Shown piece by piece: positions 36,520-48,645 of a DNA stretch of 64,000 nt; the stretch's first letter is position 1; each line of letters begins with the position of its first letter. Origin of the DNA: Phycisphaerae bacterium (GTDB taxonomy: Bacteria > Planctomycetota > Phycisphaerae > UBA1845). The position numbers were made by a program, and so were the translations under genes. The DNA lies in the NCBI GenBank assembly GCA_029260215.1, contig JAJDDQ010000064.1:35053-99052 (forward strand), read 5' to 3'. The notes under the pieces are model-generated. The model searched no databases. It saw only the letters and a list, made by a program, of their open reading frames with translations, and was not told where the DNA came from.

Positions 36520-36593
36520 GGTGGGCGTAGCTCAGTTGGTGGAGCACCAGGTTGTGGTCCTGGGGGTCGCGGGTTCAAGTCCCGTCGTCCACC
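36520..36593 (+). tRNA. tRNA-His (anticodon GTG, including G-1)
   Basis: GTGGGCG/CGTCCAC acceptor, anticodon arm CCAGG-TTGTGGT-CCTGG, T arm GCGGGTTCAAGTCCCGT, G-1:C73. Confidence 0.95.
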
Positions 36594-36798
36594 CTTGCTC
36601 TGATTTGTAATTTTCTTGGCTGGACCAACCGGCGTCCGAGTCCCGGTTGCGCAGCCGGTTTGCGCACCAATACCCGCCCGCCGGTCGCATTCCACAGCCA
36701 ACCGGACTCGTAAGTGAGGCTTGCCGACGCGATCAGGATTCGGATGAGTCGGTGGTCGAGAATTCGGGGAGTGGCAGGGGCGAACGAGTCGCTCACGA

Positions 36799-37485
36799 TT
36801 ACGTCGCGGGCTTGACCTCTTGCGCTTTGCCTTCCTCCACGAGCGAGTTGATCGATTCGACGAGTTGGTAGATTTCGGTCCAGGATTGGCCTTGATTGCG
36901 CTGTTTCTTCGCCCATTCGACAGCTCGATCCCGATGCCGCGCAATTCTCTCGTACGCCGCTTGTGCCTTATGGCGCGGGAAATCCTCTTGAAATTCGCGC
37001 TTCCAAACTTCATGGAGTCGCTTAAGCACCGCATCGCAGTTTGCGAACAATGTCCCGGTGTCCTCCAAGTGAAGCAACGTCCACACCTCGTAACACGGGT
37101 TTGAGAGCGCGACTTTCACCTCACCCTTTTTGCCACGTTTCTTTTCGCTCTCTCCGTGCGATACATTCGTTTCGCAATCAATGATCGCCCAGACTTCATC
37201 GCGGTCAGTCTCGTCGTGCTGATCGCTTTTCTCTTTGGATGAGAGATTTGCACGTTTTCCTAGAGCTAGGTCGAGCGCTTCGTTCCCTGCTCCCTTCACG
37301 TTTATCTTGACGTATCGACTGACCTTCTTCTTCAAGAGTTCGAAATACTTCGGTGCCGTCTCTGCATCGTCGAAATAGACCCACACGACCGGAAGCGTCG
37401 CTTTGAAACCGTAAGCTCTCTGCCGGGCACGTCCTCGCGTTGACGCCTTCCTGTCCCGTCGCTTGTTTTCGCGTTTGTGGTTCAA
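36799..37485 (-). CDS. rloB: RloB-like (Toprim-related) protein, partner of upstream AAA ATPase
   Basis: ETAPKYFELL, DEVWAIIDCE, SNPCYEVWTLLHLEDTG are RloB-family landmarks; TTG start overlaps ATPase stop (TTGA). Confidence 0.8.
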   Translation of the reverse strand: MNHKRENKRRDRKASTRGRARQRAYGFKATLPVVWVYFDDAETAPKYFELLKKKVSRYVKINVKGAGNEALDLALGKRANLSSKEKSDQHDETDRDEVWAIIDCETNVSHGESEKKRGKKGEVKVALSNPCYEVWTLLHLEDTGTLFANCDAVLKRLHEVWKREFQEDFPRHKAQAAYERIARHRDRAVEWAKKQRNQGQSWTEIYQLVESINSLVEEGKAQEVKPAT

Positions 37486-38750
37486 TCATCAATACCAAGG
37501 GGGCCGAGCGAAGGTAGCGCACCGTAACGTCCTTGCAAATATCGCCGCCGAAGGTTCAGGTTGTTACGCTCTTTGAAATCCGCGACGGAATACAACCGCG
37601 CCGCGCCGTCCGCGTCCTTCTCCGTCAAGTAAATTTGATCGCGACGCAGAACGGCGTCCCTCGCTTCACCATCGATGAGCGCATTTTCATGCGTGGCGAA
37701 AATGAGCTGCCCGCGAACACGATCCATCGGGCATTCGTTCAATTCGCGGAGCAGCGTTTCGAGCAACTGCGGATGCAGCGACGCGCCCAGTTCGTCCACG
37801 AAGTATGCGCGTACTGTGTCGCCATGCGTTAAGTCGTGAATGATCGGTGCCAACTCGATGAACCTGCGCGTGCCAACGGATTCAGACCAGTAGTCGATTT
37901 TCCTGGTCCCGGCTGGGCCGTGATGAAAGAGTGACAACTTGTATCCCTCAGCCCGACGGCGTCCCGTTAACACATCGGCAAGATCGGAAGCGTTCGGCTT
38001 GGCAACGGCCTCCACGTCATAGTGCGACACACCGAAATCAGCATTGGCGATCCACGAAGACAGCCATGCACCAAAGCCGTCAGGATCCTTGTGCGCCCAT
38101 TCGGCAGGCGCGTTTTCTGTACGGTAACGGACGAGTGGAGACGTGATGTTGAGCAAGAGGTTTTGCAATCCGACGGCCAGTTTTTTCGCCAGTGACGGCG
38201 CCAGGCTATCTGCCAGAGCAAGAAGAAGAGCGTTGGGTCGGAACTTTTGTTTTAGAATTTTGAATTGCCGTTGGCTGGTCCACGTTCCCGTTACCGATTG
38301 ACCATGACGTTCAAAGAGTACAGATTCTCCCTTGCCTGAGACCTGAACAAGACTTTCACTGATGAATTGAGTAGCGTCGAACTCGACTTTGTATTCATAT
38401 TCGCGCCGATCCACGACGGCTCGAAGGCCAAGCATGACGGGCGATTTCGGTCCGTTGTCATCGAGCAAGAATGGGTTGTAAGAATCGATCGGGGCGTCCG
38501 AGCTTGAGAACATAGTGAACCACATTAGTCTCGCCAGTTCCGCAGCGGCCAGCAAAACCGTCGATTTGCCCGAAGCGTTGGGGCCGTAGATGCCGACGGT
38601 GCGGAGAAGTCGTAGCGGCTTTTCCTCGCCTTCGACCTCGACCTCGACGATTCCCTTGTCGCTGTCGGGATCGATGTCGGTAGCCAGCATGGACAGCCGA
38701 AACTCATCACGAAAGCACCTGAAATTGCGTCCGAAAAACTCGATCAGCAT
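37482..38750 (-). CDS. AAA_15/21-type ATP-binding protein (RloA/AbiLi/AriA-like)
   Basis: LRTVGIYGPNASGKSTVLLAAAELARL Walker A; FVDELGASLHPQLLETLLREL; LIFATHENALID. Confidence 0.87.
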   Translation of the reverse strand: MLIEFFGRNFRCFRDEFRLSMLATDIDPDSDKGIVEVEVEGEEKPLRLLRTVGIYGPNASGKSTVLLAAAELARLMWFTMFSSSDAPIDSYNPFLLDDNGPKSPVMLGLRAVVDRREYEYKVEFDATQFISESLVQVSGKGESVLFERHGQSVTGTWTSQRQFKILKQKFRPNALLLALADSLAPSLAKKLAVGLQNLLLNITSPLVRYRTENAPAEWAHKDPDGFGAWLSSWIANADFGVSHYDVEAVAKPNASDLADVLTGRRRAEGYKLSLFHHGPAGTRKIDYWSESVGTRRFIELAPIIHDLTHGDTVRAYFVDELGASLHPQLLETLLRELNECPMDRVRGQLIFATHENALIDGEARDAVLRRDQIYLTEKDADGAARLYSVADFKERNNLNLRRRYLQGRYGALPSLGPLGIDD

Positions 38751-38767: not shown

Positions 38768-38784
38768 GCGCAGAAAATCTGCGC
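38768..38784. promoter_or_regulatory. Palindrome GCGCAGAAAATCTGCGC (operator/hairpin candidate) upstream of the RloA-like gene
   Basis: 7-bp arms GCGCAGA/TCTGCGC with AAA centre; second copy in inverted orientation at 38851-38867. Confidence 0.7.
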
Positions 38785-38850
38785 ACCTGTGATAACATAC
38801 CATCAAATCGGCCATCCGGATGCAGGGAAACAAGTTGAAATCGACATTTT

Positions 38851-38867
38851 GCGCAGATTTTCTGCGC
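38851..38867. promoter_or_regulatory. Palindrome GCGCAGATTTTCTGCGC, exact reverse complement of 38768-38784
   Basis: Direct reading; centre-to-centre distance 83 bp. Confidence 0.7.
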
Positions 38868-38943: not shown

Positions 38944-39007
38944 GTTGTAATTAGGTTTTTGTCAGGGCCTTGGCGGATGACGAACTCAAACGGGAGCAGG
39001 TCAGGAG

Positions 39008-42969: not shown

Positions 42970-44817
42970 TCAGCGAATGACGAACTCAAACGGCAGCATG
43001 GTGATCACACCTTCCTTGTGGATCAGTTCCAGCCGGGTGAGGGCCTGGGTCAGCGCCGCCGCCCGTGCGGGCTCCATTTGCCGGAGCAGGGGCAGAACCA
43101 TATCCATCAAAGCTGATTGCCGACTGAACAATGTCGTTTGCGTGCGTACGGTCAGGTCTGTGGGTCTTTTGCCTTCGCCGGACAATTCCTGAAAAATCGT
43201 CTGGAAGAAATCCTTCGGCTCGGGCACGACGCGTACGTCGTAGTCGCTGATTTTCGCCTGACGAGCCGCGAATTCGATGGCATCGTGAAAGCCGCCGATT
43301 TTGTCCACCAAACCGTTTTCGACGGCTTGCTTGCCGGTGAAAACACGTCCGCTGGCCAGCTTGTCAATTGGCTTGCTCAGCTTGTCGCCACGGCAGGCGG
43401 TGACGTGGCCTTTGAAAATGTCGTAAATTTCGCTCATCCAATCGTGGATTTTGGTTCGCTGACGCTCGCTGAAGGGTTCGAGCGTGTTCATGATGTCGGC
43501 GTTCGCACCGCGTGCATGCGGTACCCAATCCACACCGAGCTTGTTCCACAGACCGGCGGTAACGATCTTTCCACCGACCACGCCAATGGAACCGGTGATC
43601 GTGGTCTCGTCCGCGAAGATCATATCCGCGCCCATAGCCACGTAGTACCCGCCGCTGGCTGCGACGTTCCCCATCGACACGATGAGCGGCTTCTTAGCTT
43701 GAACCTTCTTTGCGGCGCGGAGGATAATCTCGCTGGCCAAGGCAGAGCCGCCGGGCGAGTTGACGCGGAGGACGACGGCTTTGATCGATTTGTCGGTCTC
43801 AGCCTCACGCAGGGCGCGTTCAATATCGCCGCTGAACGCCCCGCTGGACCCACCAAAGGGCGACGGCTCACCAAAGCCGGTCACGATCGCACCGTCTACA
43901 TAGACAATGCCGACCGCCGGCGCTGAGTTCTTCTTTTTTCCACCGCCGAACATGTCACCGAAGATGGAGAACATGGCGAACGGGTTGGAGAAATCCATCT
44001 TGGGGCCGTCTTTTACGGCGTAGCGATTGTCGATTTCAACATCGTCGCCGTAGATGGCATTGATTTCGTCGATGAATTCGTCGCGATATTTCACCGAATC
44101 GATCAGCCCCAGCTCAAGCGCCTTCTCAGCCGAGTAGGGACCGTTGTCGATGATCTTGCGTACTTTGTCGGACGACATGCCGCGCGCGTCGGCGACCATG
44201 TCGACGATGCTGCCGTACAGGCCGTCGAGAAGCCAGTCGATGTTTTCCTGAGCGGCTTCACTGGGGCCGGAGCGGTAGAAAGTTTCGCCGGCGGACTTGT
44301 AGTCGCCGATGTGAACGATGTCCGCCTCGCACCCAATCTTGGTCAGCATGTGCTTGAGGTACATTCCCTCCGCGTAGAAACCGTTGAGCCAGACGTCGGC
44401 CGTCGGCACGATACTCAAGTCCGTCGCAGCCGATGCGAGCGCGTACAAACCGGTGTTCAGCGAATCAACGTGAACGAAGACGCGTTTGTCGATGGCTTTG
44501 AACTTCTTCAACTCGTCGCGCAGTTCCTCCAGTTGTGCAGACCCCAAGCCGATGCTCGACATGGTCAACACAATCGCTCGGACATCATCATCCTTGCGTG
44601 CTTTGGCCAGCCGTTCGAGCGTGCGTTTGAGCGACGGTGCCTTCCCGCCAGACAAGCCGAAGGGGTCTTCGCGAGGTGTTTCACTCATCGCACCTGAAAG
44701 ATGAAAATGAGCGATCTTTTTCCGCTCAGACTTGTCAAACTGCGCTGACGCAGCAATGGGGAACATAACAGCGACCGCCAACGCGACGGACCAACTTCTG
44801 ACGACAACTTTGGACAT
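42970..44817 (-). CDS. sppA: Signal peptide peptidase SppA (long type)
   Basis: VVLRVNSPGGSALASEIILRA, PLIVSMGNVAASGGYYVAMGADMIFADETTITGSIGVV. Confidence 0.94.
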   Translation of the reverse strand: MSKVVVRSWSVALAVAVMFPIAASAQFDKSERKKIAHFHLSGAMSETPREDPFGLSGGKAPSLKRTLERLAKARKDDDVRAIVLTMSSIGLGSAQLEELRDELKKFKAIDKRVFVHVDSLNTGLYALASAATDLSIVPTADVWLNGFYAEGMYLKHMLTKIGCEADIVHIGDYKSAGETFYRSGPSEAAQENIDWLLDGLYGSIVDMVADARGMSSDKVRKIIDNGPYSAEKALELGLIDSVKYRDEFIDEINAIYGDDVEIDNRYAVKDGPKMDFSNPFAMFSIFGDMFGGGKKKNSAPAVGIVYVDGAIVTGFGEPSPFGGSSGAFSGDIERALREAETDKSIKAVVLRVNSPGGSALASEIILRAAKKVQAKKPLIVSMGNVAASGGYYVAMGADMIFADETTITGSIGVVGGKIVTAGLWNKLGVDWVPHARGANADIMNTLEPFSERQRTKIHDWMSEIYDIFKGHVTACRGDKLSKPIDKLASGRVFTGKQAVENGLVDKIGGFHDAIEFAARQAKISDYDVRVVPEPKDFFQTIFQELSGEGKRPTDLTVRTQTTLFSRQSALMDMVLPLLRQMEPARAAALTQALTRLELIHKEGVITMLPFEFVIR

Positions 44818-45075
44818 TTGGGAACCTCCGAATTCTCGCAAGCAAATCTAAGCGACCACGCTATTCCGAATACCAGTCTACATCGTCATCGGCTCGTCGT
44901 CGCCCATTCGCACGGTATTCGACAAGACCGGACAGGTATGTGCCTGCCGCGACGAAAAGGGACGATTTCAGAGGATCATTGCAATCGGACACCTGATCGC
45001 GCTACAATCGTCCGAAAGTACCTTCGATGTCGCGGTGGCTTGCGGCCTTCGATCGTCGGCGCGGAGAAATGACAA

Positions 45076-48000
45076 ATGCATCGTCTTGCTGGGCTTGCAC
45101 TCACAGCAGCCACCGTCGTTTGGGTATCCCCTGTCCGGGGCGTCCCGAACGTTCAGGCGGAGGGCTTGGATTCTATTTTTACGGTCAGTTCCCACCCGGG
45201 CGAGAGCCTGGTGGTCAAAAGCGATCTCAATCGCCTGCGACGGTATACCGGTGGCGAGAAGCCTCGCGTGGCGGGATTCCCGCTTTCGCGCGACGTTTCG
45301 GTCGATCTGGAGTTGCAGCGTTTGCGCGTGGCTGCCCCCAACGCCCGATTCGTTCTCGGCAGGCGGAATGGGCCTGACGTTGCGATTGAATACAACCCCG
45401 ATCGCGTGGTGATGTTCAGGGGTAAGGTCTCGGGAGAGGCGGACTCGAGCGTCTTCGTCGCGTTCGGTCCCGACTTTGCTACAGGACGCATCAAGACTTC
45501 AGCCAATGGTGGAACGTACCAGATTTCCAATTCGTTGCTGGGCGGTGCGAAGCTGCCTTCCGGTTCGTTCACGGTTTACGAGCCGACTGGTTCAGGTGTC
45601 GGGCAGCCGCCGGTCACGTTTTGCGGAACGGATACGTCGGGCGTGGTCATGCAGGAAGGGCCTCTCATCGTCGGCGATTCCGTACCGTCGAAATTGAAAC
45701 ACATCGAAATCGCGATCGATTCGGACTACGAGTATTTCGAGCTGTTCGGGAATCTCGAATCGGCGCTCGATTACACGCTCGCGCTCTACGGCGTGATGAG
45801 CGATATCTACATACGCGATGTGAACGCGCGTCTCGAACTGGTATTCATACGATTGTGGGATAATGCGGACGACCTCTTCAACGAGCCGGACCCGTTCTCG
45901 CCGTTTCGAAGCCAATGGAGTGCCAACATGGACAACGTCGATCGCGACGTGGCCCAACTGCTCACCGGGCGACGAAATCTGCCCTACGGCGGCGTGGCGC
46001 AACTCAACGGCCTGTGTACCAACCGCGCATACTCTGTCGCGGGTTACCTGCTCGGCTCGTTTCCCAGCCCGGATCGCCCGAGCCACGCGCACTGGGACAT
46101 CATCGTCACCGCGCACGAGTTAGGCCACAATTGCAATACGACGCACACGCACAGCTACTTTCCACAGATCGACAATTGCGCCGGCGGTGAAATCACGCGC
46201 AGCTCGATCATGAGTTACTGCCACCTGAATCCGGGTGGGAACGGAAACGTGGATCTGCGTTTTCATGCTCGCGTGCAAACTGTGATGCAGTCGTACATCA
46301 ACGGTGCCGCCTGCGTGGATGTCGATTGCAATCAGAACAGCATTCTCGACACCCTGGATATACTCAATCTCAGCAGCGCCGATGAGAACGACAACAACAT
46401 TCCCGACGAATGCGAGGACTGCAACGATAACGGCCTCATTGACATCGAAGAAATTCTGGCTGCCGGCATATTGGACGTGGATTTCAACGGTGTGCCCGAT
46501 AGTTGCCAAGCCGACTGCAACAGCAACGGTCGGCCTGATGCTACAGATGTCATGCTCGGATTCAGCCCGGACGTTGAGGGCAATCTCGTGCCCGATGAGT
46601 GCGCCCCCGATTGCGACGGCAATGGTGTTGGAGATTATTTCGAGATTCTGGACGACATGTCGCGAGACATCGACCGCAACGCCGTTCTTGACACCTGCCA
46701 GGACTGCGACGGCGACGGCTTGAACGATTTCGATACGCTGAACGGTCGGGGCAACATCTGGATCGCGGGCTTTTTCCGCATCGCCGAGTTTCACGGCGCG
46801 AGTGGTGTTCTCGTTAGATCGAGCGCTTCTGGCCAACTGAATTTTTCGAGTCGGATGCTGATCGATGGAACAGGGCGTGTACTCGTGGGCGATAGCATCG
46901 GCGGGCAGGGTCGCATCGCGGCGTTTGATCGCGACGGCCAACCGCTGAGCGATTTAGTCCCAACGAGCACGAGCGATCTCGGGCTGCCGGGGGGCATCAT
47001 CTTCGGACCTGGCGGGCACATCCTCATCGTCGATTCATCGACAAATCGTGTGCTCGAATTCGACAGCGAGACCGGTGCATTTCGGCGGGTGGTGGTCGCT
47101 TCGGGCGCGGGTGGACTGTTCACCGCACGCGACCTCGCAATCAGCCCAGCCGGTGAAATCCTCGTGACGAATCAGCTTTCCAGCCGAATCAGGCGATACG
47201 ATTTCGAATCCGGGGCGTACCTGGGCGAATTCTTCGCTCCGGGAACGCGCCAGCCGCTGCGCATCGACGGCGGCATGGTCTTCAAACCCGACGGCAACCT
47301 TTTGGTAGCCAGCAATGGTGATCGCGCAATCCTCGAATACCACGGGCAAAGCGGGGAGTTTCTTCGCGTGTTTACGCGCAGCGGCGGTGGCGGCGGGTTC
47401 TGGGAGCTGAATAATCCCAATGCAATTCGTATCGGCCCGGACGGGAATGTCTACGTTCTCGATTCTGGCGGCAACCTGCTACTGCAGAAATATGACGTCC
47501 GTACGGGGTTCTTCCTTCGCTCCTATTTCATCCTGCCGCAAGGCAACGTGTTTTCACCAAACGGGTTCGACTTCATGCCCGACGAGATCGATATCGATTG
47601 CAACCTGAACTTCCTCCAGGATGATTGTGACATCGCCTCGGGACTGTCGCGCGACATCAACAATAATTCGAGGCCGGACGAGTGCGAAACGCTCGGCGAC
47701 AACGACAACGACGGTGACATCGATCTCGACGACTACGTCGCGTTCAGGAACTGCGTCGGCGGACCGGGTCAGAGCGTCTCACCCGAATGCACCGAGGCTG
47801 ACATCGACAACGACAATGACGTGGACTTGATCGACTTTGGCCTGTTCGCGACGACGTTCACCGGAAGCTGCTCTATCGATTTTGTCATACAGCCGGACGA
47901 CGCGACCGTCTGCTTCGGCGACTCCGCAACAATGTCGGTTGAAGTGAATACAGCCAACGCATCCATTCAGTGGTTTCACGATGGTCAGCTCGTCGCGGGT

Positions 48001-48645
48001 GCGAACGGGCCGACGCTCCTGGTCGAGCCGGTCACGGCGCTCGCGATGGGCCGATACAGTGCGACAGCATCGACATCGTGCCGTTCCGTACAATCGTCGA
48101 CGGCTGAGCTGCTTCTGTTCACGCCTCCGACCATTACGACGCAACCGCTGAACGAAACGACCTGTCTCGGCGGCAGCGCTTCATTCACAGCGGCAGCGGC
48201 CGGTCACGGGCCATTCCAGTATCAGTGGCGACTCGACGGTGCGGACATACCGGGGGCAACCGCGCCCACGCTCATGATCGCAAACGTCCTTGCCGGGAAT
48301 ATCGGATTCTACAGTTGCCGCACTACCGATGCCTGCGGACTCAGTACAACGTCCAACGCAGCAGAGTTGGTTAGCGAGGAGGCAGCCTTCTACCTTCAAC
48401 CGACCGACGAGAGCCTCTGCCTCGGCGAATTGCTGTTCCTGGTCGCCAGCGCGAATGGATCCGATGCCTATCAATGGTTCAAAGACGGCGAACCGATCGC
48501 AGGCGCCACGTCGTTCTTCATCGTAACCGAGAACGTGACCGAAGAGGCTGCCGGCGTCTATTGGGTCGTGGCATCGAACGAGTGCAATGACACCGTGTCC
48601 GAAACGGCGGAGGTCGAAATCGTTACGTGTCCGGGCAGCCCTTAG
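45076..48645 (+). CDS. Large exported multidomain metalloprotease (HExxHxxxxxH) with EF-hand repeats, beta-propeller-like and Ig-like domains
   Basis: IIVTAHELGHNCNTTHTHSY; DCNDNG/DCDGNG repeats; GPDGNVYVLDS-type propeller; GDNDNDGDIDLDDYVAFRNC dockerin-like; three Ig-like repeats (TCLGGSASFTAAAAGHGPFQYQW...). Confidence 0.85.
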   Translation: MHRLAGLALTAATVVWVSPVRGVPNVQAEGLDSIFTVSSHPGESLVVKSDLNRLRRYTGGEKPRVAGFPLSRDVSVDLELQRLRVAAPNARFVLGRRNGPDVAIEYNPDRVVMFRGKVSGEADSSVFVAFGPDFATGRIKTSANGGTYQISNSLLGGAKLPSGSFTVYEPTGSGVGQPPVTFCGTDTSGVVMQEGPLIVGDSVPSKLKHIEIAIDSDYEYFELFGNLESALDYTLALYGVMSDIYIRDVNARLELVFIRLWDNADDLFNEPDPFSPFRSQWSANMDNVDRDVAQLLTGRRNLPYGGVAQLNGLCTNRAYSVAGYLLGSFPSPDRPSHAHWDIIVTAHELGHNCNTTHTHSYFPQIDNCAGGEITRSSIMSYCHLNPGGNGNVDLRFHARVQTVMQSYINGAACVDVDCNQNSILDTLDILNLSSADENDNNIPDECEDCNDNGLIDIEEILAAGILDVDFNGVPDSCQADCNSNGRPDATDVMLGFSPDVEGNLVPDECAPDCDGNGVGDYFEILDDMSRDIDRNAVLDTCQDCDGDGLNDFDTLNGRGNIWIAGFFRIAEFHGASGVLVRSSASGQLNFSSRMLIDGTGRVLVGDSIGGQGRIAAFDRDGQPLSDLVPTSTSDLGLPGGIIFGPGGHILIVDSSTNRVLEFDSETGAFRRVVVASGAGGLFTARDLAISPAGEILVTNQLSSRIRRYDFESGAYLGEFFAPGTRQPLRIDGGMVFKPDGNLLVASNGDRAILEYHGQSGEFLRVFTRSGGGGGFWELNNPNAIRIGPDGNVYVLDSGGNLLLQKYDVRTGFFLRSYFILPQGNVFSPNGFDFMPDEIDIDCNLNFLQDDCDIASGLSRDINNNSRPDECETLGDNDNDGDIDLDDYVAFRNCVGGPGQSVSPECTEADIDNDNDVDLIDFGLFATTFTGSCSIDFVIQPDDATVCFGDSATMSVEVNTANASIQWFHDGQLVAGANGPTLLVEPVTALAMGRYSATASTSCRSVQSSTAELLLFTPPTITTQPLNETTCLGGSASFTAAAAGHGPFQYQWRLDGADIPGATAPTLMIANVLAGNIGFYSCRTTDACGLSTTSNAAELVSEEAAFYLQPTDESLCLGELLFLVASANGSDAYQWFKDGEPIAGATSFFIVTENVTEEAAGVYWVVASNECNDTVSETAEVEIVTCPGSP

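What the first reader, a model, noticed from the sequence alone, without database searches (positions are those of the whole stretch)
36799..38750. RloA/RloB-like ATPase-Toprim pair: candidate anti-phage module
An AAA_15/21-type ATPase is translationally coupled (TTGA overlap) to an RloB-family protein. ATPase + Toprim/RloB pairs of this architecture are related to abortive-infection systems (AbiL, PARIS AriA/AriB, OLD-like). RloB proteins as I recall them carry a CEGEKTEPNYF-type motif, whereas this one reads YFDDAETAPKYF. Several acidic catalytic positions thus look changed, suggesting divergent chemistry or inactivation. It sits next to tRNA-His.
Basis: partly seen in the sequence, partly recalled or inferred. 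Interest (0 to 1): 0.62.

Follow-up and report, generated by a model that had tools for sequence, protein, structure and literature searches.

The report
Planctomycete RloA/RloB module with paired operators
This is a two-gene ATPase plus nuclease-like module of the AbiL (RloA/RloB) antiphage type, belonging to a planctomycete branch in which the nuclease's metal-binding residues have been rearranged, not lost, and whose promoter is flanked by two near-identical palindromes about eight DNA turns apart that look like a dedicated regulatory switch.

Summary
The pair is real: RloA (37482-38750, minus strand; Rad50/PtuA-like ABC ATPase, PADLOC AbiLi, E=6e-69) and RloB (36799-37485, minus strand; Pfam RloB, PADLOC AbiLii), overlapping at TTGA. 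It is an AbiL-type module; phage defence is inferred from this.

The odd motif YFDDAETAPKYF is not decay. A 9-member Planctomycetota clade shares it (DD...[T/A]A, with DxE replacing DxD). In 72 RloB proteins the acid at position 40 appears exactly where the acid at 44 is lost (12/12 versus 0/60, two origins). The metal ligands therefore look moved or swapped, not absent.

They are the only exact copies in the 4.97-Mb genome. Most clade members share the pair (82-84 bp apart in 8; between-site sequence at chance identity). Searching 114 genomes of the order with the pair pattern hit five, all next to rloA, one a new member with the same DD/TA/DxE RloB. Rlo pairs outside the clade lack it. I read it as a dedicated, probably autoregulatory, DNA-looping operator pair. 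No activity was measured.

The parts
37482..38750 (-). rloA: ABC/Rad50-like ATPase, 422 aa; Walker A GPNASGKS, signature ESVGT, Walker B/D-loop FVDELGASLHP, switch His in FATHE
   Evidence: PADLOC AbiLi 6.1e-69; AAA_21 1.4e-25; G56 N58 G61 K62, G293, D319 E320, H326, H354 invariant in 72 relatives; AlphaFold pLDDT 92.8; Foldseek to Rad50, PtuA (Septu), OLD
36799..37485 (-). rloB: RloB/AbiLii-family Toprim-like protein, 228 aa, TTG start overlapping the rloA stop
   Evidence: Pfam RloB 1.2e-21; PADLOC AbiLii 1.4e-16; AlphaFold pLDDT 88.8, four beta-alpha units then a helical domain
37342..37377 (-). motif I YFDDAETAPKYF (residues 37-48): D39 D40 and A44 in place of E39 G40 and E44
37171..37179 (-). 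motif II D103-C-E105 (DxE in place of the usual DxD)
   Evidence: D103 invariant in 89 sequences; E105 in all clade members
37087..37089 (-). E133 in SNPCYEVW, invariant in all 89 RloB sequences; candidate metal-B ligand
   Evidence: metal-B role by analogy with E508 of Bp OLD (PMC6755086)
38768..38784 (.). proximal palindrome GCGCAGAAAATCTGCGC, 34 to 18 bases upstream of the rloA start codon
38851..38867 (.). distal palindrome GCGCAGATTTTCTGCGC, exactly 83 bp from the proximal one
38794..38811 (-). promoter-like stretch CCGAT-N7-TATGTT between the palindromes; a CGAT 22-23 nt before the proximal palindrome recurs in most clade members
   Evidence: by-eye alignment; the sigma-70 scan found nothing, so this is inference

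Best explanation
It is an AbiL-type (RloA/RloB) defence module. By analogy with PARIS and AbiL, the Rad50-like ATPase RloA probably senses infection and holds or releases RloB, a Toprim-like two-metal nuclease that then stops growth by cutting RNA or DNA (inferred). In this planctomycete clade the metal site is rebuilt: E39->D with D105->E at the metal-A triad, and the metal-B acid shifted from 44 to 40, so RloB is predicted to be active with altered geometry (inferred from conservation). Expression is controlled by two matching palindromes, one just inside or downstream of the promoter and one about 83 bp (about 8 helical turns) upstream. A dimeric protein, most simply RloA or RloB itself, could bridge them and repress the operon by looping (site pair and spacing shown; binding, looping and binder identity inferred).
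For: Family assignments. RloA adjacent to RloB in nearly all ~100 loci; six of the seven exceptions start within about 210 bp of a contig end. ATPase motifs intact; RloA fold like PtuA/Rad50/OLD. Clade of 10 RloA sequences with 100% SH-aLRT support, all Planctomycetota. D39 D40, A44 and DxE in all nine RloB clade members sampled, including one found through the DNA element alone. D40 with no acid at 44 in 12/12 versus 0/60, two origins; D39 always with E105, 10/10. Bp OLD: E400, D455, D457 serve metal A; E404, T506, E508 serve metal B (PMC6755086). Palindromes: only two exact sites in the genome. Spacing 82-84 bp in eight members while the between-site sequence is at chance identity, 0.28 versus 0.25 shuffled. 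Pair pattern in 5/114 genomes of the order, reversed control 0/114, all five beside rloA. Eight rloA outside the clade examined in the order have at most 8/12 matches, including a second rloA in genome G365, whose clade copy has the pair. Only rloA and rloB are shared among clade flanks, apart from frames antisense to them and one unrelated long frame in two loci.
Against: No activity was measured. No significant fold match to a solved Toprim. Distal palindrome missing in L026 and G018 and degenerate in L025, so looping is not needed in every member. G014 has doubled sites about 87 bp apart. No DNA-binding domain was identified in RloA or RloB; the binder could be an unlinked host factor. L. 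lactis AbiLii was not toxic in E. coli, though F. nucleatum AbiLii was, and AbiLi did not neutralise it (PMC3985639), so the antitoxin picture is uncertain. The ligand swap rests on two evolutionary events, too few for a test. The relatives are mostly draft metagenome-assembled genomes.
Confidence: 0.55

Rival explanations
1. Catalytically dead RloB: the clade lost nuclease activity and RloB now acts as a binding or regulatory subunit, perhaps binding the palindromes as a repressor.
For: The Toprim-defining Glu and the second conserved Glu are both replaced; the N-terminus is basic; the palindromes are clade-specific.
Against: D103, E133 and surrounding residues stay invariant; E105 and D40 keep the acid count; the deep-branching members G014 and G018 have the palindromes but retain E39 and DxD, so the operator predates the D39/E105 change.
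Confidence: 0.2
2. The palindromes are bound by a host transcription factor encoded elsewhere (for example a BrxR/WYL-like or stress regulator), not by RloA/RloB.
For: Defence loci are often controlled by such factors binding inverted repeats (PMC9122601); no DNA-binding domain was identified in RloA or RloB.
Against: Only two exact sites in the genome, both at rloA; the single one-mismatch site lies inside a long open frame; no regulator gene recurs next to the module.
Confidence: 0.3
3. The palindromes act as RNA hairpins (leader control) and not as DNA sites.
For: The proximal palindrome may lie in the 5' leader and folds as a 7-bp hairpin.
Against: The fold of the leader is no better than shuffles (z -0.8); the distal copy lies upstream of the likely promoter; precise spacing without sequence conservation fits DNA better.
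Confidence: 0.08
4. Not defence but a housekeeping or stress role, as proposed for the archaeal OLD-family ATPase Cran1.
For: An OLD-family ATPase was reported with a cell-cycle role (PMC12796447, abstract); the window copy lies among ordinary genes.
Against: Patchy distribution (4/60 relatives; 13/294 in the phylum); some clade members lie beside DNA methyltransferases or a HepT-like gene.
Confidence: 0.12

Closest known systems
AbiL (AbiLi/AbiLii) of Lactococcus lactis
   Same: Two-gene operon; RloA matches AbiLi (6e-69) and RloB matches AbiLii (1.4e-16) in PADLOC; published work places AbiLii in the RloB family (PMC10440598)
   Different: Motif-I and motif-II acids replaced; paired palindromic operator (whether L. 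lactis abiL has one was not examined); phenotype untested here
RloA/RloB (R-linked ORFs of type I restriction loci)
   Same: Same gene pair and RloB Pfam family
   Different: No restriction-modification genes among the neighbours examined in the window (34.0-49.6 kb)
PARIS (AriA/AriB)
   Same: ABC ATPase partnered with a Toprim nuclease in separate genes; RloA weakly similar to AriA
   Different: RloB did not match AriB models; trigger and tRNA target unknown here
Septu PtuA, retron ATPases, OLD and Gabija GajA
   Same: RloA fold or profile similarity
   Different: Toprim-like part is a separate short protein; no HNH partner or helicase neighbour seen next to it
BrxR and AbiEi operators
   Same: Palindromes or inverted repeats in promoters of defence operons (PMC9122601; PMC7319586, abstract)
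   Different: Here two matching palindromes are about 83 bp apart around the promoter, with no linked regulator gene

Membership tests
AbiL / RloA-RloB pair | AAA_21-type ATPase with intact Walker A/B, signature and switch residues | tested here: met
AbiL / RloA-RloB pair | RloB-domain (PF13707/AbiLii) partner directly downstream and coupled | tested here: met
AbiL / RloA-RloB pair | Abortive-infection phenotype against phage | not testable with these tools
   needs plaque assays
Canonical RloB motif | CEGxxTEPxYF motif I (acids at 39 and 44) | tested here: not met
   D39 D40 A44 instead; outside the clade and L028, E44 is present in 79/81 and E39 in 65/81
Toprim superfamily | Invariant Glu in the first loop plus DxD | tested here: not met
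   literal residues are Asp and DxE; acidic equivalents present at the same positions
Toprim superfamily | Toprim fold | tested here: inconclusive
   model shows four beta-alpha units with acids after strands 1 and 3, but Foldseek found no significant solved match; the viral library matched only an RloB-like protein
PARIS | AriB-type partner | tested here: not met
   only AbiLii matched RloB in PADLOC
Type I RM-linked rlo genes | Embedded in an hsd locus | tested here: not met
   neighbours are MurA, PrmC, a weak M23 peptidase match, an S49 peptidase and proteins without Pfam matches
Looping operator pair | Two copies of one palindrome at fixed helical spacing around a promoter | tested here: met
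   82-84 bp in eight members; the promoter position itself is inferred
Looping operator pair | A protein that binds and bridges both sites | not testable with these tools
   needs EMSA and reporter assays

The most novel reading that the evidence does not exclude
A distinct AbiL subtype in which the RloB active site has been rebuilt (D39/D40 with DxE) and the Rad50-like ATPase RloA, or RloB, directly binds two palindromes eight DNA turns apart, so that the infection sensor doubles as a looping repressor and sensing is coupled to derepression of the module.
Probability: 0.25. Interest if true: 0.75.

Novelty: new variant of a known kind. Interest (0 to 1): 0.5.

Why it matters
How AbiL/RloAB modules are kept quiet and triggered is unclear: in one published test AbiLi did not behave as an antitoxin (PMC3985639). 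A dedicated, rigidly spaced operator pair that travels with one branch of the family offers a directly testable switch and a DNA handle that by itself recovered the module, including split and new copies, in draft genomes. The repositioned metal ligands are a natural test of which Toprim acids are really needed, and a caution against calling such proteins dead from motif mismatch alone.

Tried and rejected
Pseudogene or decay: rejected, open frames and clade-wide conserved residues. Integration at tRNA-His: no tRNA-derived repeat or integrase found nearby. Global regulon: only two exact sites genome-wide; at up to 3 mismatches 253 versus 105 for the reversed control (a palindrome and its reversal are not a perfect control), but sites with 0-1 mismatch number only three and the one-mismatch site is inside a long open frame. 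Solved homologue of RloB: none by sequence or fold. Plasmid, phage and viral carriage of close relatives: only distant matches. The loose pair pattern in viral contigs gave eight matches without the consensus pair and without rloA. The phylum-wide scan gave one other loose GC-rich match with no rloA. Paired perfect palindromes upstream of rloA outside the clade: none found. NCBIfam gave no useful match. Independent-pairs test on the ligand swap: too few events.

Full report
OBSERVATION. RloA is 37482-38750 and RloB 36799-37485, both on the minus strand, overlapping by TTGA; a TGA lies in frame directly before the RloB TTG, so that TTG is the earliest possible start. tRNA-His is at 36521-36594. 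RloB scores 78 bits against Pfam RloB (cut-off 31.5) and RloA scores AAA_21 at 1.4e-25. PADLOC assigns AbiLi (6.1e-69) and AbiLii (1.4e-16), with AriA a more distant match for RloA. The genome holds one RloB.

RELATIVES. RloB is patchy: 4 of 60 relatives and 13 of 294 genomes of the phylum. A scan of 84,980 species genomes kept 80 loci. RloA lies directly upstream of RloB in nearly all of about 100 loci; six of the seven exceptions begin within about 210 bases of a contig end, the seventh (L098) shows no RloA. The window pair falls in a tight Planctomycetota clade in which complete RloA proteins match at E of 1e-98 to 1e-134, against about 1e-18 to 1e-40 for all others. The RloA tree gives the clade 100% SH-aLRT support (10 rows; 9 without G014, 99%).

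ACTIVE SITE. In 89 aligned RloB proteins Y47, D103, E133 and W135 are invariant. Outside the clade and L028, E44 is present in 79 of 81 and E39 in 65 of 81. Clade members have D39, D40 and A44, with E105 in place of D105; the ninth member, found through its operator, has the same set. Across 72 proteins with states on the tree, D40 and loss of the acid at 44 go together without exception (12/12 and 60/60), with two origins (this clade and L079/L088), and D39 is always accompanied by E105 (10/10). A further deep-branching member, G018, reads CEDDKSAPAYF with DxD, like G014. Two origins are too few for a significance test. In Bp OLD, E400, D455 and D457 serve metal A and E404, T506 and E508 serve metal B (PMC6755086). 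If RloB is built alike, position 39 and the motif-II acids are metal-A ligands and position 44 or 40 a metal-B ligand, so the clade has swapped Glu/Asp at metal A and moved the metal-B acid. That is an inference. The AlphaFold model (pLDDT 88.8) shows four beta-alpha units followed by a helical domain, with the motifs after strands 1 and 3 and at the fourth helix, but no solved structure matched significantly. The Toprim assignment therefore leans on published HHpred work (PMC10440598) and on topology.

ATPase. Walker A, signature glycine, Walker B DE, D-loop His and switch His are invariant in 72 relatives. The model (pLDDT 92.8) matches Rad50, PtuA of Septu, retron ATPases and OLD; profile search adds AriA.

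OPERATOR PAIR. Upstream of rloA lie GCGCAGAAAATCTGCGC (38768-38784) and GCGCAGATTTTCTGCGC (38851-38867), 83 bp apart. Within two mismatches they are the only sites in the window (0.08 expected), and they are the only exact GCGCAG-N5-CTGCGC sites in the 4.97-Mb genome. Seven other clade members have the pair at 83, 83, 83, 83, 82, 84 and 84 bp, L025 among them with slightly degenerate sites; L026 lacks the distal copy, and G014 has doubled sites about 87 bp apart. Five spacers of equal length are no more alike than shuffled ones (0.28 versus 0.25), so the distance is kept and the sequence is not. A search of 114 genomes of the order with the pair pattern hit five; the reversed pattern hit none. 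All five are beside rloA. In G047 the hit supplied the front part of an rloA split between contigs, in G014 the rloA of an RloB cut off at a contig end, and in G365 a new clade member. Conversely, all six clade-type rloA in the order have at least one palindrome of this kind upstream, while eight rloA outside the clade have at most 8 of 12 matching bases, including a second rloA in G365 itself. Upstream regions of other Rlo pairs lack any repeated perfect palindrome. Among the clade flanks the only open frames shared, apart from frames antisense to the pair and one unrelated long frame in L023/L024, are rloA and rloB, so the binder is most simply one of them. A -10-like hexamer lies just before the proximal site in several members and CGAT 22-23 nt before it in most (by eye); the sigma-70 scan found nothing, so the promoter position is inferred.

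CONTEXT. MurA-PrmC is a conserved block, with tRNA-His beside it in several relatives, and the DNA beyond differs from genome to genome. The window neighbours are ordinary genes. Some clade members sit near a type III methyltransferase (L021), a DrmMII-like methyltransferase (L026) or a HepT-like gene (L022). This fits a mobile defence module but does not prove it.

MECHANISM. Shown: gene pair, coupling, intact ATPase motifs, clade-wide acid rearrangement, operator pair with fixed spacing and module specificity. Inferred: RloB is an active two-metal nuclease released or activated through RloA on infection, and the operator is bound cooperatively, probably by looping, by RloA or RloB. F. nucleatum AbiLii is toxic in E. 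coli and its AbiLi did not relieve that (PMC3985639), so control at the promoter would fill a gap, but nothing here measures it.

Noticed in passing
window 38973-38998 and 42973-42998: A 26-bp stretch encoding the C-terminus (LPFEFVIR) of the S49 peptidase gene (42970-44841) recurs at 92% identity exactly 4,000 bp away, between rloA and the 39-42 kb gene block; each copy lies near a GC-rich hairpin (about 38.91-38.94 and 42.90-42.94 kb). It may mark the edges of an inserted or duplicated cassette.
   Followed up: partly
L079, L088: RloB proteins from a Pirellulales MAG and a Myxococcota MAG independently show the D40/no-E44 arrangement (TEDTH[SA]P..YF).
   Followed up: partly
L037, L047, L050, L067, L076, L084 and other actinobacterial loci: Actinobacterial RloB proteins replace the motif-I Glu by Cys, Asn or Gly (CCG, TNG, IGA) while keeping E44, so the Toprim glutamate is not invariant in this family.
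   Followed up: no
L003/L022 (G047): A HepT-like RNase gene lies directly downstream of the clade RloB.
   Followed up: no
L159 and L144 (G365): One genome carries two RloA/RloB pairs, one of the clade with the palindrome pair and one ordinary CEG-type without it.
   Followed up: yes
window 45076-48645: 1189-aa protein with reprolysin-like metallopeptidase, NHL and Ig-like domains, a large secreted-type protein.
   Followed up: no
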